The notes under the pieces are model-generated. The model was not told the origin of the DNA. It was given only the letters and a program-made list of their open reading frames with translations, and did no database searches. The position numbers were made by a program, and so were the translations under genes. Shown piece by piece: positions 342 through 13,656 of a DNA stretch of 32,653 nucleotides. Position 1 is the stretch's first letter, and every line of letters starts with the position of its first letter. Where the stretch lies: contig CAIOOA010000250.1 of NCBI GenBank assembly GCA_903859815.1, positions 1 through 32,653 on the forward strand. Direction: 5' to 3'. The stretch is from an uncultured Methylococcaceae bacterium. Its GTDB lineage: Bacteria > Pseudomonadota > Gammaproteobacteria > Methylococcales > Methylococcaceae.

Positions 342-959
342 ATGGCAAACGATTACATTCCACGGTCCTATACGAATCTTCAACAATGGTTGCAAACCCA
401 GAAAGACAATATCGCCGAGGTCGGCGCATCCCTAGGCATGACTGCCGATGAGCAGACCGCCTACCTGTCCTCGGTGCAAAAATTATTGGATAAGGTGGTC
501 TCGATTGTCGAATTGACCCATCAACTCGATCATTTGAAAGCCGACTTTGAGCCATTGTTGGCGGCGGAAGTGCCGAATCTGCATCTGCATGTCAGACGGT
601 TGAAAACCCATGTTGAATATACCCCCAGCATCGGTTTGCGAATGCATTGGGTGGGCGAAAAACATGAGGTGGATTCCGCCACTTCGCAACCGACCATCAC
701 CGCGACGGGGATGGGCTTGCGCGTCAAGATCGAAGGCACCAAACCGGGCTTTGAAGCCGTCAATCTCTACATGCGCCGCAAGGGCGAAATCTCTTGGATT
801 CAAATCGCTGTGCGCAAACGGCGCTATCCGATTTATGACGAAATCCCCCCGATCAATTTGGACATTCCTGAGGTTCGGGAATATCTTTGCCGGGGTGTGG
901 TCGATGACGAGGAAACTGGCCTGCCCAGCCCCATCGTCGAAGCGGTGGTGGCGAAATAG
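342..959 (+). CDS. Hypothetical protein, 205 aa, probable helical N-terminus and beta-rich C-terminal half
   Basis: I do not recognise a named family with certainty. The ATG at 342 is preceded by GCGGAG about 10 bases upstream, a fair ribosome binding site, and a TATACT -10-like box lies at 291-296 without a good -35. Residues 1-75 look helical (QQWLQTQ, AYLSSVQKLLDKVVSIV). Residues 110-160 look like beta strands of an immunoglobulin or fibronectin-III type sandwich (TITATGMGLRVKIEG, AVNLYMRRKGEISWIQIAV). No signal peptide or membrane segment is visible. It resembles, from memory only, small uncharacterised proteins that begin with an M-x-DYIPR motif. It stands alone between two repeat tracts, upstream of the RAYT gene on the same strand and divergent from the NACHT gene's island. 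Nothing points to a specific role. Confidence 0.75.
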   Translation: MANDYIPRSYTNLQQWLQTQKDNIAEVGASLGMTADEQTAYLSSVQKLLDKVVSIVELTHQLDHLKADFEPLLAAEVPNLHLHVRRLKTHVEYTPSIGLRMHWVGEKHEVDSATSQPTITATGMGLRVKIEGTKPGFEAVNLYMRRKGEISWIQIAVRKRRYPIYDEIPPINLDIPEVREYLCRGVVDDEETGLPSPIVEAVVAK

Positions 960-965
960 AAAGTA

Positions 966-1062
966 GGAGTGCAAGGCTTGCCTTGCGGAACCTCGAACAT
1001 CATTGGAGTGCAAGGCTTGCCTTGCGAAAAAATAAATATAAGCAAGGCAAGCCTTGCACTCC
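966..1062. repeat. Three REP elements of the GGAG family; two form a head-to-head hairpin
   Basis: Copies lie at 966-987 and 1005-1026 (direct) and 1042-1062 (inverted). The core is GCAAGGC-TT-GCCTTGC, a near-perfect palindrome preceded by GGAGT. The second and third copies face each other across an A/T-rich spacer, giving about 21 bp of inverted repeat with a loop near 15 nt. The same head-to-head unit with a similar spacer recurs at 1776-1834 and 5015-5073. It sits between the stop of the 205-aa gene and the RAYT start, so it could also end transcription of the former. Confidence 0.9.
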
Positions 1063-1111
1063 AAATGTTATTATATTTTCTTGAGGCATTGACGATATAG
1101 AAGCTTTAACC

Positions 1112-1645
1112 ATGCTTAGGCATCATCCCAACACCCCCGCCCATCTATACTTGGACGATACGCCTTATTTCATCACCGGGGCTATTTACAACCGTCGGCA
1201 TTTGCTAGAGCTAGATGCGCTAAAGCAGGAATTTTTATTATGTATGAGGAATGTCTTTTCCTTTTATCACTGGGATTTGCAACATTGGGTCATTCTCGTC
1301 AACCATTATCATCTGTTGGCAAACAGTCGGAGGGGCAAGGACATGCCCTCCATCATCGGCGAATTGCATAGCCGCTCGGCGCATTTCATCCGGCAAGCCA
1401 CAGCCTGTGAACTACCCGTCTGGTGGAATTATTGGGACTACTGCCCAAGGGACGAGCAGGATTATTACCGCCATCTGAACTATTTACTTTATAACCCCAT
1501 CAAGCATGGCTATGTGACCGATCTAAAGCAGTATGCCTATTCCAGTTTCCATCAGTTGTTTGATCGACTTGGCAGGGAGGAACTGGCCCGACAGTTCCAT
1601 ACTTACCCCGATTTCCGTTCGCTGGATTTGTCGGATGACTTCTAG
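1112..1645 (+). CDS. REP-associated tyrosine transposase (RAYT, Y1/IS200-like HUH family)
   Basis: A 177-aa single-domain Y1 transposase. These enzymes nick single-stranded DNA at the foot of a REP hairpin, through a tyrosine that forms a covalent 5'-phosphotyrosine link, and are thought to spread REP elements. The sequence shows the metal-binding HUH-type motif in HWVILVNHYHLLAN near residues 58-71 and, near residues 119-134, YRHLNYLLYNPIKHGYV, which matches the catalytic-tyrosine helix IRYIHLNPxKAGLV of the family. The usual small aromatic-rich N-terminus (YLDDTPYFITGAIYNRR) is present. The length is close to typical. No strong Shine-Dalgarno precedes the ATG. The gene is bracketed by REP copies of one family, on the left at 966-1062 and on the right from 1659, as expected for a RAYT and its cognate REPs. 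It appears intact. Confidence 0.9.
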   Translation: MLRHHPNTPAHLYLDDTPYFITGAIYNRRHLLELDALKQEFLLCMRNVFSFYHWDLQHWVILVNHYHLLANSRRGKDMPSIIGELHSRSAHFIRQATACELPVWWNYWDYCPRDEQDYYRHLNYLLYNPIKHGYVTDLKQYAYSSFHQLFDRLGREELARQFHTYPDFRSLDLSDDF

Positions 1646-1658
1646 GAAATAATTATCT

Positions 1659-1797
1659 GGAGTTTCAGGCTTGTCTTGCGAATTTCCCATGCCGATTGGA
1701 GTGCAAGGCTTGCCTTGCGTAATTCCCGCGTCAATTGGAGTCCAAGGCTTGCCTTGCGTAATTCCCGCGTCAATTGGAGTCCAAGGCTTGCCTTGCG
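1659..1797. repeat. REP array, direct half: four copies at a 39-bp period
   Basis: GGAG-type REP copies begin at 1659, 1698, 1737 and 1776, exactly 39 bp apart. They are linked by a conserved spacer (TAATTCCCGCGTCAATT in the later copies). The first copy is the most diverged (GGAGTTTCAGGCTTGTCTTG). The array starts 14 bp after the RAYT stop codon. All copies point the same way and face the second half of the array at 1814. Confidence 0.9.
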
Positions 1798-1813
1798 AAT
1801 AAAATAAAAATAA

Positions 1814-2022
1814 GCAAGGCAAGCCTTGAACTCCCGCAGTAGCCGCAAGGCAAGCCTGAAACTCCCGCAGCATCGGCAAGGCAAGCCTTTGAACTCCCAC
1901 AGCAACGGCAAGGCAAGCCTTGAACTCCCGCAGCATCGGCAAGGCGAGCCTTGTACTCCCTCAGCGTCGGCAAGGCAAGTCTTGAACTCCCGCAGCATCG
2001 GCAAGGCAAGCCTTGCACTCCA
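1814..2022. repeat. REP array, inverted half: seven copies at a 31-bp period
   Basis: The inverse REP unit (GCAAGGCAAGCCTTGAACTCC) begins at 1814, 1845, 1876, 1908, 1939, 1970 and 2001, so spacing is 31 or 32 bp. The linker is CGCAG plus CATCG, TAGCC or a close variant. The orientation is opposite to the four copies at 1659-1797, and an A/T-rich joint at 1798-1813 separates the halves. Open frames through the array translate into cysteine- and leucine-rich repeats on the minus strand and are artefacts of the repeat. Extent from 1659 to 2022 is non-coding. Confidence 0.9.
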
Positions 2023-2066
2023 AGAGTTCGAGCGAAGCGGAATACGGGTTTCTGGGCTACGACCGC

Positions 2067-2099
2067 CCCGGATTACGCCGCGAAGCGGCACCATCCGGG
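2067..2099. repeat. Hairpin element, different REP-like family
   Basis: Outer arms CCCGGAT (2067-2073) and ATCCGGG (2093-2099) enclose a perfect inner hairpin GCCGC-GAA-GCGGC (2077-2089). It lies about 50 bp beyond the stop codon of the minus-strand NACHT gene, so it could protect or end that transcript, but there is no T-tract on the minus strand. The remaining bases 2100-2150 show nothing I can name. Confidence 0.65.
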
Positions 2100-2150
2100 C
2101 TGACTACCGCTTATGGGGCATTGCGGGTATGAGTGGTTTGGAAGATGGGT

Positions 2151-4928
2151 TTATTCGGGTTCATCGAAAATTGCGCCAGCGGTTTTGGCTTCTCGCAATT
2201 GCTCTGGGTCGTATTTTGCGCCTCTGAGATTAGCCATACTGAGATTGGCCTCGTGGAGGTTGGCCCCGCTGAGGTTGGCCCCGCTGAGGTTGGCCCCGTC
2301 GAGGCGGGCTTCGCTGAGATCGGCCCCACTGAGGTTGGCCCGGCTGAGGATGGCCCGTCTGAGGACGGCCTGTCTGAGGTCGGCCCCGCTGAGATCGGCC
2401 CCGATGAGGTCGGCTTCGATGAGGTTGGCCCTGCTGAGGTTGGCATCTCTGAGGTTGACATTGTAGAGGTTTGCATTGTCAAGTTGGGCATGGAAGAGGT
2501 TTGATTGGGCGAGGCTGGCTTGTAATAAAATTGCATAACTAGCTGAAACGTTCTTCAAATTGGCATTATCCAAATTTGCCTCATACAAATCCACCATTTC
2601 TAATATAGCTTGGTCTAGATCGACAAACGAGAGACAATCCAAGGCTAATACATTATCCGAGTTTTTGCGCTGCCCTTGTACCCGTCTAATCCACGCCCCA
2701 AACGTAGTCGGCTCGGGATGTTCGATTTTACTGACAATCTTCGTCACCCTAGCACAGGCATTCATCGCCGCGAGCAAGGCTTCTTCGGCATTGCGCGACT
2801 TAAACAACATATCGCTGAAGGTGGGCAGTTGCAGCCTTTCCATCGGGCTGCCATGGCGTAGCATAGTGCTGAATAAGCGGACAAAATGTTGTTGCCAAAG
2901 GGTAACTTCTTCTATTGAATGCAATGCCACTTCCGCCAACCAAAACCGATGCAAAAAGCCTGACACCGCCGTAGGCCCGCATAATCTGGCCCATTGCTCC
3001 AAGGCATAGGTTTCGCTCCACCCTTTGTTACCGCCTTTTATGTCCCGCGTTTCACGTTCTTCCACGATGTCTTCCATGGCCCGCACCAGCCGTCTGGCTG
3101 CGAGGTATTCGCCAAAGCTTTTGTGGGTAAACACAAAGGTCGGGTCGCCGCGTTGACGCTCGCCATGTTGCCGAAAAAAGAATGCAGCCAGCAAGCGGGT
3201 TATGCCCCGTTCCGCGCCTTCGCGAAAGGCTTCCAATTGCTTATCATAACCGGCATCGCGACAGTGCTGCTCGATTTCCTTGATCGTGGTGCTGCGTCCA
3301 TCGCCATGCCAAGCCGCCAAAGCGACTTCTTCCAGCATTAAGAAGAAATCCGCCAATTCCATGTGCCGCACCCCGGCATGACGTCGGCCTTCCCTGCCTT
3401 CATAACCGCGTTCATGTACGGCTTTGACGAGGCTGTAATAAATCTGGTTCAGATTGATGTCCTTGCTGAAATCCAATTCGCCCCGGCAATAGCTGATCGC
3501 CAGCAAGTAATTCAGCAAGGGTTGGGCATTCACCTCCTGCAAATCTTCCCGATTTAACTCTTGAGGCATCCCATCTATAGGTTTGCCAGTCAAATGTCCA
3601 TAATTCTGCCACCAGTCTTGGCGCAAATCCCGTTGCAGCCGTTGGTCCGAGTCTATCCATGTTTTGTCCTTGCGATCAGTCTCGCTAGTGAAGTAGGGCA
3701 ACACATGGAGAATTTGTTGGGGTTTGCGGAATTCTGACCGCGTGTCTTGGATGACCACTTCCCGTCCGCTAAACAACACCCGCAGGTTTAACATGCTTGA
3801 GTTTCTTTGATAAACGAAGTTCTGCACCGCGTTGACGAAATCCCTTGCCGTCAAAGCCGCTGCTTGGCCTTGGTTCGCCAGTTCGTCCAAGCCGTCTAGG
3901 ATCAGCAGCAAGTTGGTTTCGGCGTAATCTGGATGTAATGGATTATGCGGGAGGATTTCTAAATTGCGCACGAAACGACCAAAGGCTTCGACAAAATCGC
4001 CAGCCGGGTCGATCAAGTGTAAGGGTACGAATAACACTTTTAAGCGGCCCTCGGCGGAAACCCGTGCGGCGAACATCTTGGCAAAAGACGATTTGCCACT
4101 GCCGGGTCCACCACTCAGAACCCGCACGGCATCATCTTTGTTGGATTGTTGCAGCCATGCGGTTAATTCCTCAGCCAGTTCGACCACCATGCGCATTTTC
4201 GACTGGCGTGGTTCCATCTCTAATACCGCGTCGGCTTTTTCCTCGCGATAGCCATTCAGTGGAATATAGATCTGTTTCAGGCCGAAGGCTTCCCCAAACG
4301 CGCCTTCTTCTATATTTTTTTGAAGGGATGCATGATAAGTCCGCCAAGCCTGTTCTCGCTCGCTGGCTTTGGCGAACGGCGTATCCAAGGCGGCTTTAAT
4401 CGGTGCGTAACGCTCGCCGTGCTTGCGCCATTCCCGGTGCAGCGCAAATGGGAAATATCCGGGTAGACGGGCGGCTAGGGTTTCAGCGACGGCGGCTTCC
4501 GTATCATGGACTATCAGCCATGCGGCGAGGGCTTGCTGGATGGTTTGCAACAGCGGCAGGTTTTGCGGATGCTCAAAGAAATCCCGACTGATGCTGATGT
4601 TGGTGATATGCGGTTGTAGCGTGGTGACGAAATCGCCAGTGTGTTGTTCTAGCGTAGGCGGCAGATGGCTTTCGCTGTCGCGGAGCAAATCCGCCAAGGC
4701 CAATTGCAAGGCTTGTTGCACCAATAGGAAGAGCAAAACCTCCGGCTCGTTGCCGCGTAGCCCTAAAGCCTCCAAGGCATCCACGCCGTCATCGGCAAGG
4801 TCTTCAAACTTGCCTAACAATCCGTGGCCGATGGCTTTCGCCAAGACTTGGCTGAATGCCTTGGCATCCAAAGATAGGGGTTTGTCCCAAACGGAAACGG
4901 GGGGTGCAGCGTTTAATTCCAATGCCAT
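2151..4928 (-). CDS. NACHT-family NTPase with C-terminal pentapeptide repeats (925 aa)
   Basis: A STAND-class NTPase of the type used in bacterial immunity and programmed-death switches: ligand sensing drives NTP-dependent oligomerisation and effector activation. Walker A GGPGSGKSS is at residues 273-281, Walker B LLILDGLDEL at 341-350 and an Arg-containing sensor-1-like LRVLFSGRE near 382-390. FTHKSFGEYLAA at 600-611 is the motif common at the end of NACHT winged-helix regions. Residues 781-905 are tandem pentapeptides A(N/D)Lxx (for example LSGANLSGANLHEANL), which fold as a right-handed quadrilateral beta-helix and here may be the sensor. Residues 1-250 are helical and match no effector I know. 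The ATG at 4928 has AGGA about 8 bases upstream; a GTG at 4961 would add 11 residues but lacks a ribosome site. It is separated from its neighbour by 261 bp of REPs, so it may have its own promoter. Target and effector activity are unknown. Confidence 0.9.
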   Translation of the reverse strand: MALELNAAPPVSVWDKPLSLDAKAFSQVLAKAIGHGLLGKFEDLADDGVDALEALGLRGNEPEVLLFLLVQQALQLALADLLRDSESHLPPTLEQHTGDFVTTLQPHITNISISRDFFEHPQNLPLLQTIQQALAAWLIVHDTEAAVAETLAARLPGYFPFALHREWRKHGERYAPIKAALDTPFAKASEREQAWRTYHASLQKNIEEGAFGEAFGLKQIYIPLNGYREEKADAVLEMEPRQSKMRMVVELAEELTAWLQQSNKDDAVRVLSGGPGSGKSSFAKMFAARVSAEGRLKVLFVPLHLIDPAGDFVEAFGRFVRNLEILPHNPLHPDYAETNLLLILDGLDELANQGQAAALTARDFVNAVQNFVYQRNSSMLNLRVLFSGREVVIQDTRSEFRKPQQILHVLPYFTSETDRKDKTWIDSDQRLQRDLRQDWWQNYGHLTGKPIDGMPQELNREDLQEVNAQPLLNYLLAISYCRGELDFSKDINLNQIYYSLVKAVHERGYEGREGRRHAGVRHMELADFFLMLEEVALAAWHGDGRSTTIKEIEQHCRDAGYDKQLEAFREGAERGITRLLAAFFFRQHGERQRGDPTFVFTHKSFGEYLAARRLVRAMEDIVEERETRDIKGGNKGWSETYALEQWARLCGPTAVSGFLHRFWLAEVALHSIEEVTLWQQHFVRLFSTMLRHGSPMERLQLPTFSDMLFKSRNAEEALLAAMNACARVTKIVSKIEHPEPTTFGAWIRRVQGQRKNSDNVLALDCLSFVDLDQAILEMVDLYEANLDNANLKNVSASYAILLQASLAQSNLFHAQLDNANLYNVNLRDANLSRANLIEADLIGADLSGADLRQAVLRRAILSRANLSGADLSEARLDGANLSGANLSGANLHEANLSMANLRGAKYDPEQLREAKTAGAIFDEPE

Positions 4929-4967
4929 GTCAGTTCCTGCGTGGCGCGAATAAATAAGCACAGTTTA

Positions 4968-4997
4968 TCATTACCGGGTTCCCAGCTTCACGACCAA
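4968..4997 (-). promoter_or_regulatory. Candidate sigma-70 promoter for the NACHT gene
   Basis: On the minus strand TTGGTC (4992-4997) and TAATGA (4968-4973) are separated by 18 bp. This places a start site about 35 nt before the ATG at 4928. The match is moderate, and the position just downstream of the REP cluster fits an independently transcribed gene. Confidence 0.3.
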
Positions 4998-5014
4998 TCA
5001 GTTAAGCACAAATT

Positions 5015-5106
5015 GGAGTGCAAGGCTTGCACTGCATAAAAATAAAACATAAGCAAGGCAAGCCTTGCACTCCCAAAGCAACCGCAAGGCAAGCCTTGCA
5101 TTCTCC
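5015..5106. repeat. GGAG-family REP cluster, three copies
   Basis: One direct copy (5015-5035) faces two inverted copies (starting 5053 and 5084) across an A/T-rich joint. The two inverted copies are again 31 bp apart, the same period as the array at 1814-2022. The element fills most of the gap between the FGE-fold gene and the NACHT gene. Confidence 0.9.
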
Positions 5107-5136
5107 GAACCAGCCAAGCTAGAACTTGTAAGCCAA

Positions 5137-5163
5137 GGGTTCCCAGGCGGAACTTGGGAACCC
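5137..5163. repeat. Perfect 9-bp inverted repeat (hairpin)
   Basis: GGGTTCCCA and TGGGAACCC flank a 9-nt loop. It lies 27 bp past the stop codon of the minus-strand FGE-fold gene. No run of T follows on the minus strand, so it is a palindromic repeat rather than a convincing intrinsic terminator, although it may stabilise the transcript end. Confidence 0.7.
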
Positions 5164-5189
5164 GCCAAAAGAGCAAAGCATGAAGGCAA

Positions 5190-6398
5190 TTAGTCTTGAA
5201 CGAGACGGAAACCGTAGTTGAGGCTGCGGGAGTCAGGGAAGTGCGCATAGCGGGCGGCGGAACGCGCGGCCCTGTCGCCGATGTTCCACGCCCCACCCCG
5301 AAGCACCCGGCTGTCGGCGGCATCGTTTGTGCAAGTCTTCTCGCTGCCATTATAGGCATCAGCATAACCCGAGCAAGTCCATTCCCAAACATTGCCGGAC
5401 ATGTCATACAGTCCAAAGTCATTGGCTTGTTTTTTCCCAACCGAATGAGTCGTACCGCCCGAATTGTTGGAGTACCAAGCCACTGCGCCCGCATCGTCCG
5501 ACCCGCAACGGGTTTGCTGCTTTCCACCTCGGCAGGCATATTCCCACTCCGCCTCAGTGGGCAGACGGTAATTCTGTCCGGTCAATTGGTTGAGCTTGGC
5601 GATATAGACTTGCGCGTCATTGAAGCTGACTTGTTCAACCGGGCATTTGCCGCCGCAATTCTTGAAATAGGACGGGTTGGAACCCATCACCGCTTGCCAT
5701 TGGGCTTGGGTCACTTCGTATTTGCCGAGCTTGAAAGGCTGCACACAGACTTCATGTTGCAGTTCATCATGGTCTCTGTTGGCTTCGTTGGCAGGACTGC
5801 CCATTTGGAAACAACCGCCTTTGATTGCTACCATAGCCGGGAGCATGGCATGTAGTTGCCGTTTGGTTTCAGCAATTTCCGCTTGCAATTGCTTTTGTCT
5901 GGTTTCGGCATTGTCGTTGATCTCTTGCAACGCCTGTTGCAAACGCGGCAGGTCTCGCTTGATGTCGGCGAGGGTATTAATTTGATAGCGTTCGGTTTGT
6001 TCCCAAGCAAACGCCGCCGCCAGAACTCCGACTGCGGACAAACCCAGCAGGGCTGCGAATGCCATGGTCCGCCGCAACCAAACCCCAGTTAGTCCCGGTT
6101 GGGTTTGGGCATGGCCCAAGGCAGCCGTCAGGGCTTGGACAACCTGCAAAGCGGCCTGTTGGGCTAGGCCATGAATCTGTCGCAACTGTCGCACGGCTTT
6201 ACGGCGATTAGATTCGCCCGGATGCTTCCGCAACAAATCCACCACACCGGCCTCGTGCGCCGTTTCCATCAGCCATGCCTCCTGTTTGTGTTGACCGTCC
6301 AGCAACCGGCCTATCAACGGGCCGCGTTCCTGCAACACGCCCACGCCATGCTTATTGACCAAATCTTGCAGAATTTGGGTTAGGTCTAGCTTGGTCAT
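5190..6398 (-). CDS. Membrane-anchored FGE/SUMF-fold protein with helical N-terminal adaptor domain (402 aa)
   Basis: Residues 1-95 form a helical domain homologous to the start of the TonB-domain neighbour. A membrane segment at 109-132 follows R109-R110, so the N-terminus should be cytoplasmic. A coiled coil spans about 140-185. Residues 192-402 are a formylglycine-generating-enzyme (FGE-sulfatase) domain in the periplasm: GGCFQMGS, YEVTQAQWQAVMG, PVEQVSFNDAQVY, YRLPTEAEWEYACRGG, GLYDMSGNVWEW, RVLRGGAW and GFRLV. Where aerobic FGEs carry their two copper-binding cysteines, after the RGG motif, this protein reads NIGDRAARSAAR with no cysteine. It is therefore unlikely to oxidise sulfatases and probably binds a ligand, glycan or protein. 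The start at the ATG at 6398 has GAGG about 14 bases upstream. A candidate promoter lies at 6568-6596. No sulfatase gene is nearby. Confidence 0.88.
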   Translation of the reverse strand: MTKLDLTQILQDLVNKHGVGVLQERGPLIGRLLDGQHKQEAWLMETAHEAGVVDLLRKHPGESNRRKAVRQLRQIHGLAQQAALQVVQALTAALGHAQTQPGLTGVWLRRTMAFAALLGLSAVGVLAAAFAWEQTERYQINTLADIKRDLPRLQQALQEINDNAETRQKQLQAEIAETKRQLHAMLPAMVAIKGGCFQMGSPANEANRDHDELQHEVCVQPFKLGKYEVTQAQWQAVMGSNPSYFKNCGGKCPVEQVSFNDAQVYIAKLNQLTGQNYRLPTEAEWEYACRGGKQQTRCGSDDAGAVAWYSNNSGGTTHSVGKKQANDFGLYDMSGNVWEWTCSGYADAYNGSEKTCTNDAADSRVLRGGAWNIGDRAARSAARYAHFPDSRSLNYGFRLVQD

Positions 6399-6430
6399 TG
6401 GGTGTACTTTGACTCCTCAATAATGAAAAA

Positions 6431-6550
6431 TGTAGGGGGTTCTTTTGCCGTTTGGGAACGCCAAGCACCGGCTGGGCGAGCGGCTTGCTTATGCCAAGCG
6501 GGTGCTTGGCGTTCCATGGCTTAAGCTTGTCGATGGCTGCAACCCCTACA
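6431..6550. repeat. 120-bp nested palindrome, MITE-like or compound REP
   Basis: Outer ends TGTAGGGGGTT (6431-6441) and AACCCCTACA (6541-6550) are inverted copies apart from one extra G. Inside, GGAACGCCAAGCACC (6455-6469) and GGTGCTTGGCGTTCC (6501-6515) are a perfect 15-bp inverted repeat, and within its loop GCTTG (6484-6488) pairs with CAAGC (6494-6498). No ORF and no clear target duplication are seen. It lies in the 252-bp gap between the TonB-domain and FGE-fold genes, in the probable leader of the latter. Confidence 0.75.
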
Positions 6551-6567
6551 GGATCGTTCGGTCTCCG

Positions 6568-6596
6568 ATTTTAACCAGTGGTGTTACTACGCTCAA
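6568..6596 (-). promoter_or_regulatory. Candidate sigma-70 promoter for the FGE-fold gene
   Basis: On the minus strand TTGAGC (6591-6596) and TAAAAT (6568-6573) are 17 bp apart, a good sigma-70 match. The leader to the ATG at 6398 would be about 165 nt and would contain the nested palindrome at 6431-6550, which could therefore act at the RNA level. Confidence 0.45.
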
Positions 6597-6650
6597 CCAC
6601 TCTTGCTAATGGCTGGCAAGCTTACAAATGGGGGAACGCCCATCGTTTGA

Positions 6651-7619
6651 CTATTTCGGTATGGTAAACCGATAAGGTACGATCACCCACGAATCAACCG
6701 GTTTGTCGCCTCTGCGGGCTGGGGTGGCATGGGCATCTTTGACCATTACCATCGCCGCTTCATCTAAAATGCCATGGCCTGAGCTGCCGGTCATGATAAC
6801 TTCCCCGATTTCGCCTTCGCTACTGATGTGGACTTTCAGGGTCACCGTGCCTTGCCATCCCCTTTCTTTGGCCAGACGGGGATACCTTCTTTTAAAACCG
6901 CTCATCCCGGCGGGATGGTAACTTGTTCCATCTTCCGTGGCACGAGGGGCCGGCGGGGCTTCATGACGTGTCTCATGACGCGAATCTCCGGGTGCATCCC
7001 GAACCGGCTCTGGCGAAGGTGATTCGGACTGAAATGCCTTGCGCTTGATGCCTGCATCATTAGCGGCTTGTTCCATCTGCTGTTGCAATCCTTCTTCAAT
7101 CTGCTGGTGCAATGCATTTTGCTGCTGTTCGGCGGCTTGTAGGTCTTGTTGGAATTGTCGGGCGGTTGGCGTATCGTTGAACCGCGCCAATAACCAACCC
7201 GCCACAAGGCCAAGCAAGGCCAGCACAAGCAAGGACATCGCCAAGCGGGACACCCTCTTCCCTAAGCGGGCGGTAAACAACGGCGGCAATCTAGGCAGCT
7301 TGAATGGAACCGGCGGGGCCAACGGCGGCGGCGGTTTTTGGTTCAAGGCCAAAGACAACGCACGGACGGTTTCCTCCGCCGCGTCGGGAGACAGGGCGAA
7401 TTCGTTGGCAAGGATGTTATAGGCTTGCCATTGGATGGCTTCGTCGCCGCTACGCAGCAAACGCTCGACCACGCCGGCACGATAGGCGGCTTTCATTAGG
7501 AACCGCTCCCGCTCCGGCCATTTCCCGGTTTCCATCAATGCAAACAAAGCCCTCTGGTCGCGCAGCAGCTTGGGTCCGTGTTGTTTCAGCAGTCCGCTGA
7601 GGCGGGTGGCTAGGCTCAT
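6651..7619 (-). CDS. Membrane protein with helical adaptor domain and TonB C-terminal domain (322 aa)
   Basis: Residues 1-93 are a helical domain shared with the FGE-fold protein. A proline linker (PPPPLAPPVP, 97-106) leads to a membrane segment at about 125-146 preceded by Lys/Arg, so the N-terminus is probably cytoplasmic. Then come a Gln-rich coiled coil at 155-190, a charged, proline- and histidine-containing stretch at 197-230, and a TonB C-terminal domain at about 245-322 (YPRLAKERGWQGTVTLKV, GEIGEVIMTGSSGHGILDEAA, IVPYRF). Classic TonB has only a short cytoplasmic tail and a membrane helix with a key histidine for ExbB/ExbD. Here the tail is a full domain, the helix has no histidine, and no exbB/exbD lies in the window. 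An energy-transducing role is thus doubtful; signalling or envelope sensing is more likely. It starts 61 bp after the kinase stop, probably in the same transcript. Confidence 0.85.
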   Translation of the reverse strand: MSLATRLSGLLKQHGPKLLRDQRALFALMETGKWPERERFLMKAAYRAGVVERLLRSGDEAIQWQAYNILANEFALSPDAAEETVRALSLALNQKPPPPLAPPVPFKLPRLPPLFTARLGKRVSRLAMSLLVLALLGLVAGWLLARFNDTPTARQFQQDLQAAEQQQNALHQQIEEGLQQQMEQAANDAGIKRKAFQSESPSPEPVRDAPGDSRHETRHEAPPAPRATEDGTSYHPAGMSGFKRRYPRLAKERGWQGTVTLKVHISSEGEIGEVIMTGSSGHGILDEAAMVMVKDAHATPARRGDKPVDSWVIVPYRFTIPK

Positions 7620-7680
7620 GGGGATATTGTATGAAAATAAGGCAAGGTTTTGTTGTTACCGTTTGTGCGCGTTCCATCAT

Positions 7681-9012
7681 TCAGGCTAATCTGACTTTGA
7701 CAATTCTAGGCCCGATATGCAATTCCACGCCTTCCATCAAGGCGCGGGCTTTGCCGGGTTCGAGCTCAAGCAAACTGCCATCCGGGGCGCGATAGCCCCA
7801 AGTGTGGGCGGATTGGTTACGCAGAATCACATGGCCCGGCTGGTTGGGGTGCGGTTCCACGGTGGCCTCGACTTCGGTAGAGGCGGCATTGAACCGCGCC
7901 ACATCCAGATGATGACGGCGTAGGTTCGCGCCGGGATAGGCCAGTTGAACGCTATTGCCGTGGTGGGTGTGGTTCACCTCCAAGCATAACCCCAAGGCCA
8001 CGGATTTCTCGCACTTCCAACAGTTCAAGGGCTTGGACAAACCGTCCCACACATTCACCGCACCACAGCCACATTGTGGCGAGTTGGCTTCCATTTCCAA
8101 AAACACTCTGCGCCAGTCATTCAGGCGTTTGCGCTTGGATGGAACATGTACCGCATCGACAAAGGTTTCGGTGAATAGGGCTTGCAGTTTCGGCTGGCAT
8201 ATCCGTTGCCAACGAGTCACATGCAACTCTAATTCTGGTACGCCACGGGCGGTATTGGCCTGATTGGTATGGTGAAACACAAACAAGGGTTCGCTGGCAA
8301 AGTGTTTTTTCTTGGCGGGGATGTCCCATGAATAGAGTTTCATGGTTTCCTTGCCTTCCATCGGATGCTCCCACATCCACAAGTAATACAGTAGCACCGC
8401 CACCGAATACAAGTCGGTTTCGGCATTGGGCATGGACTTACCTAGAGATACTTCTGGGGCCATGAATTCCCAAACTCCCCGGATTTGGACGTTTGAATTG
8501 TTGACCACGACATTGTCGTTGTCGCAGATGACAATCTCACCTTGAACCGGGTCCAACATGATATTGCCTTGGTTGATGTCACAGTAAGCCAAGCCCGACG
8601 CATGGATGATTTCCAACGCGGCAGCCAGCCGATGGCCGATGCGGCAAAGGATGGGGAGCTTTGGCTGCTTGGTGCGACCGCTGCAAATTTGGTTGAAGGT
8701 ATAGAATTTGCCGGTATCTATCAAGGGCATTAAATAACCGAAGCCCACGGAGTTGGCAAATGACAGACATTCGATAGGCCAGATGAAATGAATGCCGGGG
8801 TCGTCTATGTGCGGGGCACCCCGATGCACCAACTCCTCAATCTGGCGCTGTTGTTGGTCCCGCCTGTCGGAGGGTTTGCACCATTTGGCCGCATAATAGT
8901 TGCCGGTGGCGGTGTCTTTGACGAGATAAACCGTGCCTTCCCCGCCGCTGCCTAACTCTTTTTCAATTTCGTAGCGTTTGCCGGAATCCCGGCCTGTGAA
9001 ATACTCAGTCAT
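7681..9012 (-). CDS. Ser/Thr protein kinase with zinc ribbon and FHA-like tail (TerY-P triad kinase), 443 aa
   Basis: Kinase domain at about residues 12-300: glycine loop GSGGEGTVY (21-29), ATP lysine K43 in YAAKWC, catalytic loop YCDINQGN (143-150, with D145 and N150), metal-binding D164 in the sequence DND instead of DFG, and APE at 185-187. All key catalytic residues are kept although the HRD arginine is replaced. A four-cysteine zinc ribbon follows (C314, C316, C331, C334). Residues 375-443 look like a small beta sandwich resembling an FHA domain (VILRNQSAHTWGY, LELEPGKARALMEGVEL, IGPRIVKVRL) but lack its usual phosphothreonine-binding residues. The ATG at 9012 has AGGA 7-8 bases upstream and overlaps the end of the phosphatase gene by 8 bp; a longer frame to 9126 lies inside that gene. 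vWA, PP2C and zinc-ribbon kinase in a row match the TerY-P triad described for tellurite-resistance-like stress systems. Confidence 0.9.
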   Translation of the reverse strand: MTEYFTGRDSGKRYEIEKELGSGGEGTVYLVKDTATGNYYAAKWCKPSDRRDQQQRQIEELVHRGAPHIDDPGIHFIWPIECLSFANSVGFGYLMPLIDTGKFYTFNQICSGRTKQPKLPILCRIGHRLAAALEIIHASGLAYCDINQGNIMLDPVQGEIVICDNDNVVVNNSNVQIRGVWEFMAPEVSLGKSMPNAETDLYSVAVLLYYLWMWEHPMEGKETMKLYSWDIPAKKKHFASEPLFVFHHTNQANTARGVPELELHVTRWQRICQPKLQALFTETFVDAVHVPSKRKRLNDWRRVFLEMEANSPQCGCGAVNVWDGLSKPLNCWKCEKSVALGLCLEVNHTHHGNSVQLAYPGANLRRHHLDVARFNAASTEVEATVEPHPNQPGHVILRNQSAHTWGYRAPDGSLLELEPGKARALMEGVELHIGPRIVKVRLA

Positions 9013-9940
9013 GGGGTTTTCCTGTTTCAGAATCTGCGTTTTGCTGGATGTCGGCGGACGGTTCCGGGCTTGATGCTGGACGCGGTGAAGAGGGCGGGAA
9101 ATAAAACACCGTGGCGATGTCGTCACCCACCCCCTGCTCGGTCAAGCGGGACAGGAAATCTTCCAGTTTGTCCTCCAGCCAGCCCAAACCTTTGTTTTCG
9201 GTGTCGCGCTGCAAAGCTATCAAAGTCTGCAATGGATTCGCCAACGAATCGGCAAACCCATCGGTGGCGGCTACAATCATATGGGTCTTTGCCAAAGGCA
9301 GCATCTTGTATTTCCATTTATAGATCGCATCAGCGGAAGCCAGGCTGTCGGTGGCCAGACCTAAACCTTCGGATTTTTCGCCAGTCAACAAATCCAATGC
9401 TTTGGTTGCCCCGGCTTCTTCGCGCACAAGGAAGACTGTGCTGTCACCGATGGAACCGGCAAACACCTGCTCGTGAAATATCAAGGCCAAGGCGACGGTG
9501 GTTCCGTAAGCTTTGAACAAGTCATTGCCTTGGCCAGCCAGTTCCAACGGATAAGCGGCCAGATGTTCGGTGACATTACGCTCCCAACTTTGGTACAACT
9601 GCCGGATAAATCGCTGACTGAATTCATTGCGCGCATTGATCAGCCAATCGTCAGCTTGGTTTTCCAAGCAATTTACCGCGAACAGCACCCAACGTGCGAC
9701 GGCTTCGGCGGCGGCACGGACGGCAAAATGAGCGCCTAATTCGCTACGGGTATACCTCGCCGCGCCATGCCCATCCGCAACAGCGAGTAGTACATAAGGA
9801 TGGCCTTTAAAATACCGAACGCTTGCCAAGCTGGCATCTTGGCAAGGCAGGTTTTTATCCACATGATTTGCGCCCCGGACGCAGCCAGTCAGTAATGTGC
9901 CGCTTTTTCCCCCTGCAATTTGTGTCCAGTCACCCGCCAT
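9005..9940 (-). CDS. PP2C-family Ser/Thr protein phosphatase (311 aa)
   Basis: A cytoplasmic metal-dependent phosphatase, presumably opposing the adjacent kinase. The PP2C motifs appear in order: NLPCQDAS (about 30-37), LAVADGHGAARYTRSE with the metal aspartate and the DGHG signature (52-67), AYGTTVALAL, FAGSIGDSTVFLV, AATDGFAD and, near the end, GVGDDIATVF. The C-terminal roughly 30 residues are Pro/Ser-rich and look disordered. No membrane segment is seen. The ATG at 9940 has GAGGA 7 bases upstream, overlapping the stop of the vWA gene, and the coding end overlaps the kinase start. The three genes are therefore likely translated in a coupled fashion at similar levels. Confidence 0.92.
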   Translation of the reverse strand: MAGDWTQIAGGKSGTLLTGCVRGANHVDKNLPCQDASLASVRYFKGHPYVLLAVADGHGAARYTRSELGAHFAVRAAAEAVARWVLFAVNCLENQADDWLINARNEFSQRFIRQLYQSWERNVTEHLAAYPLELAGQGNDLFKAYGTTVALALIFHEQVFAGSIGDSTVFLVREEAGATKALDLLTGEKSEGLGLATDSLASADAIYKWKYKMLPLAKTHMIVAATDGFADSLANPLQTLIALQRDTENKGLGWLEDKLEDFLSRLTEQGVGDDIATVFYFPPSSPRPASSPEPSADIQQNADSETGKPHD

Positions 9941-9949
9941 GGTAGTTCC

Positions 9950-10726
9950 TCAAAACACATCGTTGGGGTCTAAACCACCCAAATTGCCGGACCCCGGTCC
10001 AGTGACGGATTGCACGGATTTTGCGTCGATTTGCACCGGCACGGGGTTATTGTCTTGCAAATTGGATTTTGAGGAAGCCGAGGCCGAGGCGGCTTGGGTG
10101 CTGACCACTTTGATATGTTCCATCAAGCGACCCACATCGGGGGCCGGTAGGGTTTCCAAATGCGCTTCTTTACGCAGATAGGGCGAGATGAATTGATCCA
10201 ATTGATCTTTGTTGTAACTCCCGTCCGGGCCTATGCCGATGGCAATGCGCACCGCCTTGATTCCCCAAGGCAGTTTGTCCAATGCATTAATGGCTTGATT
10301 GTAGCGCTTCTCAGGGTCGGTACAATAACCGTCTGACAGCAGTATGACCACGGGTGGTACATTGCGACGGCCTATTTTATCCAAGGCCAATTCATCAACT
10401 AGCAATTCAATCGCTTGGGCAGTGGAGGTGCTGCCGCCCCGCGCATCCATGTCCTTCCAGTGGAATTGCTTGATGGGCACGGGCGCTGGGCCGACATGCC
10501 AACCCGCTTTGTCGCCGAATTTAATCGCCCGCATTAGAATATTGACACGTTCTCCGTCTTCAATTTTGCGTATGTCCGGCAACACGCTTTTGATGGCATG
10601 ATTGACCGCTTGGATTTTCTGACCGGACATCGACGCGGATTCGTCCACGACCCAGATAAAATGCAGGGTGCGTCGGACGGTTTCGCCTACGATGCCGTCG
10701 TCATTGATTTGGATATTGGCTGACAC
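9950..10726 (-). CDS. TerY-like von Willebrand factor A domain protein (258 aa)
   Basis: A single vWA domain with the complete metal-ion-dependent adhesion site: D28-E-S30-A-S32 (DxSxS), the threonine in GGSTSTAQA, and the aspartate in ILLSDGYCTD. Such TerY-type proteins are cytoplasmic and are thought to scaffold metal-dependent complexes with their partner kinase and phosphatase. The C-terminal 50 residues (ASASASSKSNLQ onward) are low complexity and may be a target for the kinase. The start is GTG at 10726, with AGGAG 6 bases upstream. It is the first gene of the minus-strand island; the phosphatase start follows its stop by 9 bp. Assignment to the vWA family is firm; the TerY-like label rests on its length and neighbours. 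Confidence 0.9.
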   Translation of the reverse strand: MSANIQINDDGIVGETVRRTLHFIWVVDESASMSGQKIQAVNHAIKSVLPDIRKIEDGERVNILMRAIKFGDKAGWHVGPAPVPIKQFHWKDMDARGGSTSTAQAIELLVDELALDKIGRRNVPPVVILLSDGYCTDPEKRYNQAINALDKLPWGIKAVRIAIGIGPDGSYNKDQLDQFISPYLRKEAHLETLPAPDVGRLMEHIKVVSTQAASASASSKSNLQDNNPVPVQIDAKSVQSVTGPGSGNLGGLDPNDVF

Positions 10727-10782
10727 GGGGAACTCCTGTTGTTGATGTTGACCTAAATCACAAAGGTTCTTACGAAAAGCTT

Positions 10783-10810
10783 ATCGTATCAAATTATTCG
10801 CGGATGGTAA
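10783..10810 (-). promoter_or_regulatory. Candidate promoter for the vWA-PP2C-kinase operon
   Basis: TTACCA (10805-10810) and TACGAT (10783-10788) on the minus strand with a 16-bp spacer; the leader would be about 50 nt. This is a weak match, chosen mainly because the operon must start in this 233-bp gap. Confidence 0.3.
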
Positions 10811-10860
10811 GTATGGAAAAGACAATCTCTAGGCTCCAGCCGACATTAATAAAGTTTCTT

Positions 10861-10933
10861 GGTGGGTTACGCTGCGCATCAGAACCAAAACAAACTGAAA
10901 GTTTGGTAGGATTGCGCATCTAACCCAACCCAC
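10861..10933. repeat. REP-like inverted repeat between the divergent vWA and dciA genes
   Basis: GGTGGGTTA (10861-10869) pairs with TAACCC (10921-10926), and each arm carries the small palindrome TGCGCA (10873-10878 and 10913-10918). It is a third repeat type, of the GTGGGTTACGCTGCGC style common in proteobacterial intergenic DNA. It lies just before the dciA start and may carry its leader. Confidence 0.6.
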
Positions 10934-10959
10934 TATTCGATTTAAACCTGCCAAAGACT

Positions 10960-11409
10960 ATGCCCAAACACCCCGACACCCCACAGGCATTTCTGCAAAA
11001 CGAAGTGTACATGACTATCTACAAGCGCATCGAATTTCATGCGGCTTTGCTTAAAACCATCAAGGCGGGGTTGCCGGAGATGTTGGCAAACCAATGCAGC
11101 CATTGCGTGGTGAAGGAGGGAGGGGTCGTGGTCATTTTCACCGAGTCACAATCGGTTGCCTCGCAACTTCGGTTTTATGCGCCAGCGATATTGATGAAGC
11201 TCAATGCGGACCCGCAACACTCTTTCCGCAAGGTGTTCGTTAAGTTGCTGGACCCGCCGGAGCCGGCAGTGGAAATCAAACCGATGAACCCGGTTTCATA
11301 CCGAACCGTGGAGATGGTCAGGGCCAGCATTCATTCCGAGCCTGAGGATCAATTGACGATGGCTTTGACTAGGCTGAGTGACACCATGGAACGGTACGCC
11401 AAGGATTGA
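10960..11409 (+). CDS. dciA: DciA-like (DUF721) protein, probable replicative helicase loader factor (149 aa)
   Basis: DciA binds the replicative helicase DnaB and helps load it in bacteria that lack DnaC or DnaI. Residues 25-90 show the family's KH-like pattern: a helical start (LLKTIKAGLPEML), then CSHCVVKEGGVVVIFTES, SVASQLRFYAPAILMKL and a strand near RKVFVKLL. The remaining roughly 55 residues are variable, as in relatives. It is convergent with lpxC, 49 bp apart, the position where many gammaproteobacteria have this gene. In those genomes secA often follows, but here the TerY-P island does. The ATG at 10960 has no clear ribosome site; an ATG at 11011 would remove 17 residues. I kept the longer form because the family has residues before the first helix. 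Confidence 0.72.
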   Translation: MPKHPDTPQAFLQNEVYMTIYKRIEFHAALLKTIKAGLPEMLANQCSHCVVKEGGVVVIFTESQSVASQLRFYAPAILMKLNADPQHSFRKVFVKLLDPPEPAVEIKPMNPVSYRTVEMVRASIHSEPEDQLTMALTRLSDTMERYAKD

Positions 11410-11458
11410 TCCTAGGCGTCGTTCCGTTTGTGTCAGTGAGTGTAACAGGGAGGGGAGC

Positions 11459-12373
11459 TTAGCGGAGCGCTTGGATGGTGCGCATGTAGGTAATGGGCAG
11501 ACTCTCGTCTTCGTTGTAGGTGACGGCTTCCCATGCATCCTTTTGTTTCAGCAATTCCCGCAACAATAGATTGTTGAGCCCATGCCCGGATTTGAAGCCG
11601 ACGAAGGAGCCGATCAGGCTGTGTCCGAGTAGGTAGAGGTCGCCAATCGCATCCAGTATTTTGTGTTTGACGAATTCGTCGGCATAACGCAAGCCGTCTT
11701 CGTTCAAAATACGGTAATTGTCCACTACAATGGCATTGTCCATGCTGCCGCCCAAGGCCAGCTTGCGCTTGCGCAGGGCTTCGATGTCTCGCATGAAGCC
11801 AAACGTCCTAGCCCGGCTGACTTCCTTGACGAAGGAGGTGGAGGAAAAGTCTACGCTGGCTGTTTGGTTGTCGGCGTTGAAAACTGGATGGTCAAAGTCG
11901 ATAGTGAAGGTGACTTTGAAACCATCGTAGGGTTCAAATTTCGCCCATTTGTCGCCGTCTTCAACGATAACTTCCTTTTTGATGCGAATGAATTTCTTCG
12001 GTGCGTCCTGCTCTAGGATGCCCGCCGATTGAACCAAGAACACAAAGGGACCGGCGCTGCCATCCATGATGGGAACCTCCGAAGCGCTCACATCAATATA
12101 AGCGTTGTCGATGCCCAAACCTGCAAACGCGGAGAGTAAATGTTCCACGGTGGAGATTTTGACTTTGCCTTGAACCAGTGTGGTCGATAGCATGGTATCC
12201 CCCACATTCTCAGGTTTGGCTTCGATCACAACCGGTTCGGCTAGGTCGACTCGCCTGAATTTGATGCCGCTGTTTGGCGCGGCTGGTCGCAAAGTCAAAT
12301 AAACTTTCTGGCCGGTATGCAGTCCCACACCGGTTGCCCGTATAACGTTTTTCAGTGTTCTTTGCCTTATCAT
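11459..12373 (-). CDS. lpxC: UDP-3-O-acyl-N-acetylglucosamine deacetylase LpxC (304 aa)
   Basis: A cytoplasmic zinc enzyme that makes the first committed step of lipid A synthesis, removing the N-acetyl group from UDP-3-O-acyl-GlcNAc. The start [19 protein letters not shown] is typical. Zinc ligand H78 is in STVEHLLSA, and the second site is [15 protein letters not shown], giving the other histidine and the aspartate. [12 protein letters not shown] is the conserved substrate loop. The length matches the roughly 305-residue family. The ATG at 12373 has AGGG/GGTG about 8 bases upstream. It lies 137 bp after ftsZ, the usual end of the dcw cluster, and may have its own promoter. Confidence 0.98.
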
Positions 12374-12432
12374 CGGTTCACCCTAAACTGTAGTTTTCAT
12401 CCGCCCTAAACGTCAAGGCGCATTGCTGATTA

Positions 12433-12460
12433 AGATAACCAGTCCTGCGTGTTGTTGCAA
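12433..12460 (-). promoter_or_regulatory. Candidate promoter for lpxC
   Basis: TTGCAA (12455-12460) and TTATCT (12433-12438) on the minus strand with a 16-bp spacer give a leader of about 50 nt before the ATG at 12373. A second possible pair, TTGACG and TACAGT, lies too close to the start codon. The 137-bp gap has no T-rich terminator, so read-through from ftsZ is also possible. Confidence 0.35.
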
Positions 12461-12510
12461 TGCTACAAATTGTCGCACACATCACACAGGTGGTTTGTTT
12501 CTCTGCTACG

Positions 12511-13656
12511 TTAATCCGCCTGTCGCCTCAAGAAAGCGGGAATGTCCAAGTATTCCAAATCCATTTCTTTTTTCTGCTCGTTCCTGTTATCGTGCTTGGG
12601 TTTGTTGCGGATGCTCGTTGGTTTGTCGAGCGCCCCATAATCGATTTCTCCATTATGGGTTTTCACCAAGCGAATGGGAGCCTCGTTCAGTTGGCGTTGG
12701 CTGGCAAGCCCGGTCGCAACCACGGTGACGCGCAATTCGTCGTTGAGTTCGGAGTCTACGGACACGCCTGCCACGACAATCGCGTCGTCTGCCGCGAACT
12801 CATGGACTACGTTGCCGACTTCGTTGAATTCGCTGAGGGTCAGGTCCGAACCGCCAGCGATGTTGATGAGAATGCCTCTGGCACCTTGCAAGTTGATGTC
12901 ATCCAACAGCGGACTCGCAATGGCCCTTTCCGCCGCTTCACGCGCCCGGTTTTCACCGACGGCAACCCCCGTGCCCATCATCGCCATGCCCATTTCGGAC
13001 ATTACCGTGCGCACGTCGGCGAAGTCCACGTTGATGATGCCGGGATGGGTGATTAAGTCAGCGATGCCTTGAACCGCGCCTAACAGTACATTATTGGCAG
13101 CGGCAAACGCTTCGATCAGGCTGACGTTTTTGCCTAGCACCGGTAACAGCTTTTCGTTCGGGATGGTGATCAAGGAATCGACAAATTGGCTCAATTCCTC
13201 TATGCCCTTTTCGGCGATAGCCCGGCGCTTTTTGCCTTCGAAATGGAAAGGCTTGGTGACGACCGCGACGGTCAAGATGCCGGCTTCTTTGGCTATTTCG
13301 GCAATGACCGGGGCCGCGCCAGTGCCTGTCCCGCCGCCCATGCCAGATGTAATAAAGACCATGTCTGCGCCATCCAGCACTTCAAGGATGCGTTCACGGT
13401 CATCCAAGGCGGCCTGACGTCCGATTTCCGGGTTGGCTCCCGCTCCAAGCCCTTTGGTCAATGCATTGCCAAGTTGTATGACAGACCGAGCATTGACATT
13501 TTTTAGCGCTTGCGCATCGGTATTGGCGCAGATGAAGTCCACGCCTTCGATATGACTATTAACCATGTGATTGACGGCATTGCCTCCGCCGCCACCAACT
13601 CCAACGACCTTAATAACAGCCTTCTGACTGTAGGAATCCGCTATTTCAAATTTCAT
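12511..13656 (-). CDS. ftsZ: Cell division protein FtsZ (381 aa)
   Basis: A tubulin-like GTPase that polymerises into the division ring at midcell. Visible are the N-terminal VVGVGGGGGNAVNHM, the tubulin signature GGGTGTGAAP at residues 107-116, the T7 loop INVDFADVRTVM and the C-terminal peptide LDIPAFLRRQAD that binds FtsA and ZipA. The linker before it is short and Lys/Asn-rich (KPKHDNRNEQKK). I chose the ATG at 13656 because residues from there match the family start (AVIKVVGVGG), with GGTGGA upstream; a frame open to 13704 adds 16 unlike residues. It follows ftsA by 51 bp. Confidence 0.99.
   Translation of the reverse strand: MKFEIADSYSQKAVIKVVGVGGGGGNAVNHMVNSHIEGVDFICANTDAQALKNVNARSVIQLGNALTKGLGAGANPEIGRQAALDDRERILEVLDGADMVFITSGMGGGTGTGAAPVIAEIAKEAGILTVAVVTKPFHFEGKKRRAIAEKGIEELSQFVDSLITIPNEKLLPVLGKNVSLIEAFAAANNVLLGAVQGIADLITHPGIINVDFADVRTVMSEMGMAMMGTGVAVGENRAREAAERAIASPLLDDINLQGARGILINIAGGSDLTLSEFNEVGNVVHEFAADDAIVVAGVSVDSELNDELRVTVVATGLASQRQLNEAPIRLVKTHNGEIDYGALDKPTSIRNKPKHDNRNEQKKEMDLEYLDIPAFLRRQAD

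What the first reader, a model, noticed from the sequence alone, without database searches (positions are those of the whole stretch)
2151..10726. Candidate undescribed signalling or defence island: TerY-P triad plus two membrane sensors plus a NACHT-pentapeptide NTPase
Seen: six co-oriented genes in the order vWA, PP2C, zinc-ribbon kinase, adaptor-TM-TonB, adaptor-TM-FGE, NACHT-pentapeptide. Known: the TerY-P triad is a recurrent module of predicted stress/phage-response systems, and NACHT NTPases are established antiphage and cell-death proteins. Inference: the periplasmic domains sense envelope events, phosphorylation sets the state, and the NACHT protein executes a response. I do not know this exact combination as a named system.
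Basis: partly seen in the sequence, partly recalled or inferred. Interest (0 to 1): 0.75.

Follow-up and report, generated by a model that had tools for sequence, protein, structure and literature searches.

The report
Kinase switch with arrayed adaptor proteins
A bacterial protein-kinase switch comes packaged with one or more partner proteins that share a helical adaptor domain not in current family libraries, each carrying a different sensing or linking domain; the neighbouring cell-death-like gene is a separate passenger.

Summary
The first five (vWA, PP2C, zinc-ribbon kinase, adaptor-TM-TonB, adaptor-TM-FGE; about 5027-10953) behave as one unit: in congener G002 (97% identical flank) the whole 5.9-kb block is missing while the NACHT gene remains. 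G003 (kinase, PP2C, broken vWA, one chimeric adaptor) and G005 (triad, TonB adaptor, part of a second) have no NACHT. So NACHT is outside the unit.

The ~95-aa N-terminal domain matches no Pfam family, is confidently predicted as seven helices, and travels with one branch of TerY-P kinases. In 398 genomes all five with a close kinase have it; one more has it, on a contig that ends where the kinase would lie. Adaptor-linked kinases form one clade (100/99). Copies recur in Lamprocystis, Treponema, a Methylomonas plasmid and two other proteobacterial lineages, fused to FGE lectin, ankyrin, Sel1, Tim44, Clp_N, ClpX finger or DUF805; a Prevotella plasmid match is weak.

Best reading: a TerY-P phosphorylation switch served by interchangeable adaptors, probably sensors. 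Sensing, phosphorylation and any anti-phage role are inferred. New variant of a known kind.

The parts
9950..10726 (-). TerY-like vWA protein, 258 aa, MIDAS-type DxSxS
   Evidence: Pfam VWA 3e-11; motif DESAS; 96% identical in G005
9005..9940 (-). PP2C phosphatase, 311 aa, DGHG, GDS, TDG and DDIA motifs present
   Evidence: PP2C_2 1.5e-28; motifs
7681..9012 (-). Ser/Thr kinase (443 aa from the ATG at 9012) + zinc ribbon + C-terminal beta-rich domain; overlaps PP2C by 8 bp
   Evidence: Pkinase 5.2e-20; AAKW, YCDINQGN, DNDNV, APE and CxC..CxxC; start supported by homologues; beta-rich tail about 381-439, block pLDDT 67-88 in a model that is poor overall
6651..7619 (-). Adaptor (residues 1-93) + one predicted TM (about 126-144) + linker + TonB_C
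   Evidence: adaptor HMM, TonB_C 1.2e-18; TM from the hydropathy scan of the G005 homologue; no His in the TM (read)
5190..6398 (-). Adaptor (residues 1-95) + one TM (about 112-131, by eye) + linker + FGE/C-type-lectin domain without the FGE cysteines
   Evidence: adaptor HMM, FGE 3.2e-47, best PDB match 2Y3C
7338..7619 (-). Adaptor domain copy 1, predicted as seven helices
   Evidence: E 5.7e-32 to the adaptor model, which includes it; AlphaFold2 pLDDT 90.6, pTM 0.81
6111..6392 (-). Adaptor domain copy 2
   Evidence: E 1.6e-30 to the adaptor model, which includes it
5027..10953 (.). The unit: block absent from congener G002, where about 55 bp stand in its place
   Evidence: window 823-5026 (85%) and 10954-13000 (97%) lie next to each other in G002
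2151..4961 (-). NNH3-NACHT-pentapeptide protein (936 aa; conserved ATG at 4928): outside the unit
   Evidence: NNH3 1e-37; 84% identical protein beside dciA in G002 without the block; no adaptor in G002
5053..5100 (.). Palindromic REP-like repeats between the FGE gene and NACHT, close to the left edge of the block
   Evidence: the same palindrome core recurs at 972-2016 in the window

Best explanation
It is an adaptor-coupled branch of the TerY-P phosphorylation triad. Shown by sequence: in the window the kinase, PP2C and vWA keep their catalytic or metal motifs; across lineages the triad is accompanied by one to seven proteins that share a ~95-aa domain, predicted to fold as seven helices. 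That domain is fused to interchangeable modules (FGE lectin, TonB_C, ankyrin, Sel1, Tim44, Clp_N, ClpX finger, DUF805, or only TM helices). In the window both adaptor proteins have one predicted TM, with the shared domain presumably inside and TonB_C or lectin outside. Inferred: the shared domain docks on a triad protein; the other module binds a ligand or links to the outer membrane or wall; occupancy shifts the kinase/PP2C balance; phosphorylation of adaptors or other clients is the output, protective or growth-stopping, as reported for other kinase-phosphatase defence modules. NACHT is not part of it.
For: Unit: the block is absent as one piece from G002, whose dciA-lpxC flank is 97% identical. 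Linkage: phylum survey of 398 genomes: adaptor in 6, close kinase in 5, all 5 with an adaptor (Fisher 7e-11, or 4e-5 counted by genus; the line for 'close' was drawn afterwards in the gap between E 3.6e-93 and 1.5e-35); in G479, G502 and G515 the adaptor is the next gene, and in G498 the gene next to a cut kinase piece. Whole-genome adaptor counts: Lamprocystis 2, both at the triad; Treponema 8, 7 at the triad; Methylomonas plasmid 5, all at the triad; G001, G002, G004, G006 and G030 none. Adaptor-linked kinases lie on one side of a branch, 100/99, 11 rows against 15. None of those 15 other loci shows an adaptor; 9 of them have a PP2C gene in view and 4 a vWA too. Sensor side: the FGE domain is closest to Treponema denticola variable protein (2Y3C) and lacks the FGE cysteines; array paralogues keep the first 60 codons (80-93% aa in the two Treponema pairs and one of two G258 pairs) but diverge at the lectin tip (33-53% and 50%), while g397 orthologues keep the tip at 80-93%.
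Against: No experiment; binding of adaptor to kinase is not shown, and no co-folding was run. The adaptor domain has no invariant Ser/Thr, so it is not an obvious substrate itself. The second G258 pair shows little contrast between adaptor (60-80%) and tip (53%). Some adaptor proteins lie away from a triad (repeat protein at G000 C274, beta-helix-like protein at G258 C126), and G092 and G363 have adaptors with no close kinase found. The Methylomonas plasmid array has no FGE; Clp_N, ClpX-finger and Tim44 fusions look like recruiters rather than sensors. TM helices are not universal. Motif patterns are incomplete in some relatives: no APE in three g397 kinases, no HRD-type motif found in the Prevotella kinase, no DDI motif in three PP2Cs. 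One phage-like contig has the kinase at its edge with no adaptor in view. Independent lineages are few (six plus one weak), and the models were built partly from their own sequences.
Confidence: 0.55

Rival explanations
1. The adaptor proteins are outputs rather than inputs: the kinase phosphorylates or recruits them, and their tail modules (Clp_N, ClpX finger, Tim44, TonB_C, lectin) act on proteases, the envelope or targets.
For: Fusions to Clp_N, ClpX C4 finger, Tim44 and Sel1 on the Methylomonas plasmid; no separate executioner gene was recognised in the unit.
Against: FGE domain closest to the T. denticola variable protein, a retroelement-diversified ligand binder (recalled); divergence among paralogues concentrates in the lectin tip in three of four pairs, as expected of recognition.
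Confidence: 0.3
2. Six-gene system in which the NACHT-pentapeptide protein is the executioner.
For: Same strand and neighbourhood in the window; NACHT proteins are known defence executioners (recalled).
Against: NNH3 in 2 of 61 relatives; G002 has NACHT without the block or any adaptor, G003 and G005 have triad genes and adaptors without NNH3; no NACHT among the few flanking ORFs scanned at L070, L097, L148, L149, L153 and L155; a 228-bp gap with palindromic repeats lies between.
Confidence: 0.06
3. The adaptor domain is an unlisted member of the effector-associated domains (EADs) and the locus is a form of the NTP-dependent conflict systems.
For: Small, all-helical by prediction, arrayed and fused to variable modules including FGE, with copies alike within an array; the EAD logic as read in PMC7159879; that paper also notes a kinase-zinc ribbon-beta-rich domain with PP2C and vWA in GAP1-N2 neighbourhoods.
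Against: No copy fused to a core triad protein was detected; no Pfam EAD matched any of 15 members at E up to 1.
Confidence: 0.25
4. Chance neighbours: a TerY-P triad beside unrelated membrane proteins.
For: Only 6 of 398 and 4 of 369 sampled genomes carry the adaptor.
Against: Recurrent adjacency in six separate lineages and one clade of kinases.
Confidence: 0.02

Closest known systems
TerY-P triad (Anantharaman 2012 as cited in PMC11090510; stand-alone anti-phage TerY-P of Gao 2020 as described in PMC11090510 and PMC7699616, tested in PMC10889362; passages seen)
   Same: TerY-like vWA, PP2C, Ser/Thr kinase with C-terminal zinc ribbon, in one cluster
   Different: This branch adds adaptor proteins with a shared helical domain; its kinases lie apart from the Ter-operon kinases of G002 and G030; the window unit holds no TerD, helicase or nuclease gene
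Kinase-zinc ribbon-beta-rich domain + PP2C + vWA in GAP1-N2 neighbourhoods of actinobacteria (PMC7159879, passage seen)
   Same: Same three genes and a beta-rich tail on the kinase
   Different: Different partner genes; no GAP1 gene was noticed at the loci examined here, but none was searched for by profile
EAD-coupled conflict systems (PMC7159879 section 30 read; PMC10907252 passages seen)
   Same: Small helical domain in several adjacent proteins with variable fused modules, FGE/CLec among them
   Different: No copy found on a core component; core is a kinase switch, not MoxR, STAND or GAP1
KKP kinase-kinase-phosphatase defence module (PMC11341870, passages seen)
   Same: Phosphatase-restrained kinases as a defence switch
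   Different: Two kinases; no vWA or adaptor array in what I saw
Treponema denticola variable protein (PDB 2Y3C; that it is a retroelement-diversified lectin is recalled)
   Same: FGE/C-type-lectin fold, nearest solved relative of the window FGE domain
   Different: No template repeat for the window gene was found in its draft genome

Membership tests
TerY-P triad | TerY-like vWA, PP2C and Ser/Thr kinase genes adjacent | tested here: met
TerY-P triad | kinase carries a C-terminal zinc ribbon | tested here: met
   four Cys at invariant columns in six kinases; Cys pattern found in 12 of 12 kinases scanned
Gao-type stand-alone TerY-P | kinase fused to an OB-fold | tested here: inconclusive
   tail is beta-rich in a low-confidence model; no PDB sequence match; not folded alone
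PADLOC-listed defence systems | match to a system-specific model | tested here: inconclusive
   kinase-domain similarity to PD-T4-6, mad6, MkoA and C3a189 models, and matches near E 0.005 for the NACHT and TonB proteins
[quoted passage not shown]
   adaptor profile finds copies on non-core proteins only
Effector-associated domains (EADs) | small non-enzymatic domain, mostly helical, on several adjacent variable proteins | tested here: met
   (helical by prediction)
FGE (formylglycine-generating enzyme) | two catalytic cysteines (recalled) | tested here: not met
   alignment to 1y1e: no Cys opposite either one
TonB energy transducer | N-terminal TM with a conserved His for ExbBD (recalled) | tested here: not met
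   no His in the TM, which lies at about 126-144 behind the adaptor domain
DGR target | template repeat plus reverse transcriptase matching the variable region | tested here: not met
   matches to the last 231 bp of the FGE gene elsewhere in the draft genome are only 27-42 bp long
NACHT six-gene system | NACHT gene co-inherited with the triad | tested here: not met

The most novel reading that the evidence does not exclude
A bacterial receptor system built on one kinase-phosphatase switch and an expandable array of receptors that plug in through a shared helical adaptor not in current family libraries; receptor tips diversify within the array while the plug is kept, giving one cell many specificities, possibly for phage or envelope attack.
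Probability: 0.3. Interest if true: 0.8.

Novelty: new variant of a known kind. Interest (0 to 1): 0.6.

Why it matters
How TerY-P switches are triggered is, as far as I know, open. A conserved adaptor domain that ties them to lectin-type, TonB and Clp-related modules gives a concrete, testable input or output route. It also supplies a profile with which such arrays can be annotated, and it removes the NACHT gene from the hypothesis.
Full report
Anatomy. The window is contig C250 of a 5.8-Mb, 315-contig genome. vWA, PP2C and kinase are packed (9-bp gap, 8-bp overlap); TonB follows after 61 bp, FGE after 252 bp and NACHT after 228 bp. In the window the kinase and PP2C motifs and the vWA DxSxS motif are kept. 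The kinase probably starts at the ATG at 9012, as its homologues do.

The unit and its edge. In G002, window 823-5026 (85% identical) and 10954-13000 (97%) lie next to each other with about 55 bp between. Everything from vWA to FGE is therefore missing in one piece, and the NACHT gene is not in that piece. Across 7 congeners: G000 has both; G002 only NACHT at this place; G003 kinase, PP2C, a broken vWA and one chimeric, frame-broken adaptor-FGE, no NNH3; G005 the triad, the TonB adaptor, an FGE fragment and the N-terminal part of a second adaptor (open frame of 113 aa) on a 5.5-kb contig without dciA, while its dciA has no triad in the 1.1 kb in view, and no NNH3; G004 has secA (by eye) next to dciA; G001 and G006 have other genes there. 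No adaptor was found in G001, G002, G004 or G006, and NNH3 only in G000 and G002 of 61 relatives.

Travel with the kinase. Phylum survey, 398 genomes: kinase profile in 22 at E <= 1e-15, of which 5 at E <= 1e-90 (G000, G479, G498, G502, G515) and 17 at 1.5e-35 or weaker (I drew the line in that gap afterwards); adaptor in 6, the same five plus G554. In G479, G502 and G515 the adaptor-FGE gene directly follows the kinase; in G498 it follows a cut C-terminal kinase piece; G554's contig ends 282 bp before its adaptor, where the kinase would be. All but G000 are of one genus, g397. Class survey, 369 genomes: kinase in 2 at E <= 1e-20, adaptor in 4; G092 and G363 have adaptor only. Fisher tests are; they do not correct for the fact that G000 and G258 sequences helped to build the models, and without G000 the class survey gives p 0.008. 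Named relatives: Lamprocystis purpurea (65%), a Treponema MAG (50%), Methylomonas sp. AM2-LC plasmid CP157007 (32%), Prevotella plasmid pE2-28 (27%, adaptor match weak).

Architectures. Window: TonB and FGE, each with a predicted TM. Lamprocystis: TM-FGE, and TM alone (by eye). Treponema: four FGE proteins, three of them with a detected TM, one short protein, one multi-TM protein and one DUF805 protein. G258: three FGE and one ankyrin (ankyrin by eye), and elsewhere a beta-helix-like protein (by eye). Methylomonas plasmid: Sel1, Tim44, Clp_N, ClpX finger and one without a Pfam match. g397: one FGE, no TM detected. Own genome: a third adaptor on a repeat protein at C274 (Sel1-like by eye). So FGE is common but not universal, and membrane anchoring is optional.

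A distinct TerY-P branch. In a tree of 26 kinases the 11 adaptor-linked ones form one side of a branch (100/99; one change against a shuffled mean of 8.6). The 11 include the Prevotella kinase, whose adaptor is weak. The 15 others include the Ter-operon kinases of G002 and G030; 9 of the 15 have a PP2C gene in view and 4 a vWA too, and none shows an adaptor at E 1e-4 (flanks are about 1.5 kb except 17-18 kb for G002 and G030). L153 was dropped as partial.

Sensor argument. The FGE domain's best solved relative is the T. denticola variable protein 2Y3C, E 2.8e-27. Against human FGE (1y1e) neither catalytic cysteine has a counterpart, so an enzyme is unlikely. In 30-codon windows, two Treponema pairs are 80-93% identical over the first 60 codons, 66-70% in the third window and 33-53% in the last two; one G258 pair is 90-93% against 50% at the tip; a second G258 pair shows little contrast (60-80% against 53%); three g397 orthologue pairs keep 80-93% in the windows that hold the tip. 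Array members thus mostly differ where a lectin binds. This is indirect.

Mechanism. Shown by sequence: recurrent gene set, shared domain, presence and absence as a block. Inferred from what is reported for TerY-P (PMC11090510, PMC10889362, PMC7699616: passages seen) and KKP (PMC11341870: passages seen): a phosphatase-restrained kinase whose balance shifts on a trigger. My step is that adaptors bring the trigger. The opposite direction, adaptors as outputs, is a serious rival because of the Clp and Tim44 fusions.

Literature. Searches listed no paper that I recognised as describing a shared adaptor domain with TerY-P. The primary TerY-P paper (Anantharaman 2012) is not held under the DOI I recalled, so it may mention these genes. 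Of PMC7159879 I read section 30 and passages, of PMC10907252, PMC4978471 and PMC4605624 passages; none of what I saw describes this combination.

Limits. Draft genomes, few lineages, models seeded from some of the same loci, no binding or phenotype data, and a poor kinase model.

Noticed in passing
L092 (G000 C274:15000-33000), 6163-10922: A diversity-generating retroelement in the window's own genome: reverse transcriptase (GLPIGNLTSQ), template and variable repeat of 113 bp with 14 mismatches, all 14 at template adenines; target is a 1043-aa protein ending in TM-FGE (middle looks like an nSTAND NTPase by eye).
   Followed up: partly
window 1112-1645 with palindromes at 972-2016 and 5054-5098: IS200-like (Y1) transposase beside many GCAAGGC/GCCTTGC palindromes, like a REP-associated transposase; two copies lie at the left edge of the block.
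   Followed up: no
L091 617-2278 (G000 C274): Third adaptor-domain protein of the genome, on a Sel1-like repeat protein, not near the window triad contig.
   Followed up: partly
L030 9931-10343 and 6300-7597 (G003): vWA with an internal deletion and stop, and a frame-broken chimeric adaptor-FGE: the locus looks to be decaying in this congener.
   Followed up: partly
L029 143-968 (G005): An FGE-domain fragment lies between the TonB adaptor and the N-terminal part of a second adaptor, so the adaptor part of the locus is rearranged.
   Followed up: no
L167 1-1296: A kinase of the adaptor-linked type at the edge of a phage-like viral contig (terminase-like and portal-like genes by eye), no adaptor in view.
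   Followed up: no
L070 2697-4568: A trypsin-like protein (Trypsin_2) encoded on the other strand near the Lamprocystis triad.
   Followed up: no
L095 6883-8376 (G258 C126): Adaptor domain fused to what looks like a right-handed beta-helix repeat protein, on another contig than the triad.
   Followed up: no
L031 and L032: Ter-type operons with TerD-like genes (by eye), several vWA, PP2C and kinase in G002 and G030, without any adaptor gene.
   Followed up: partly
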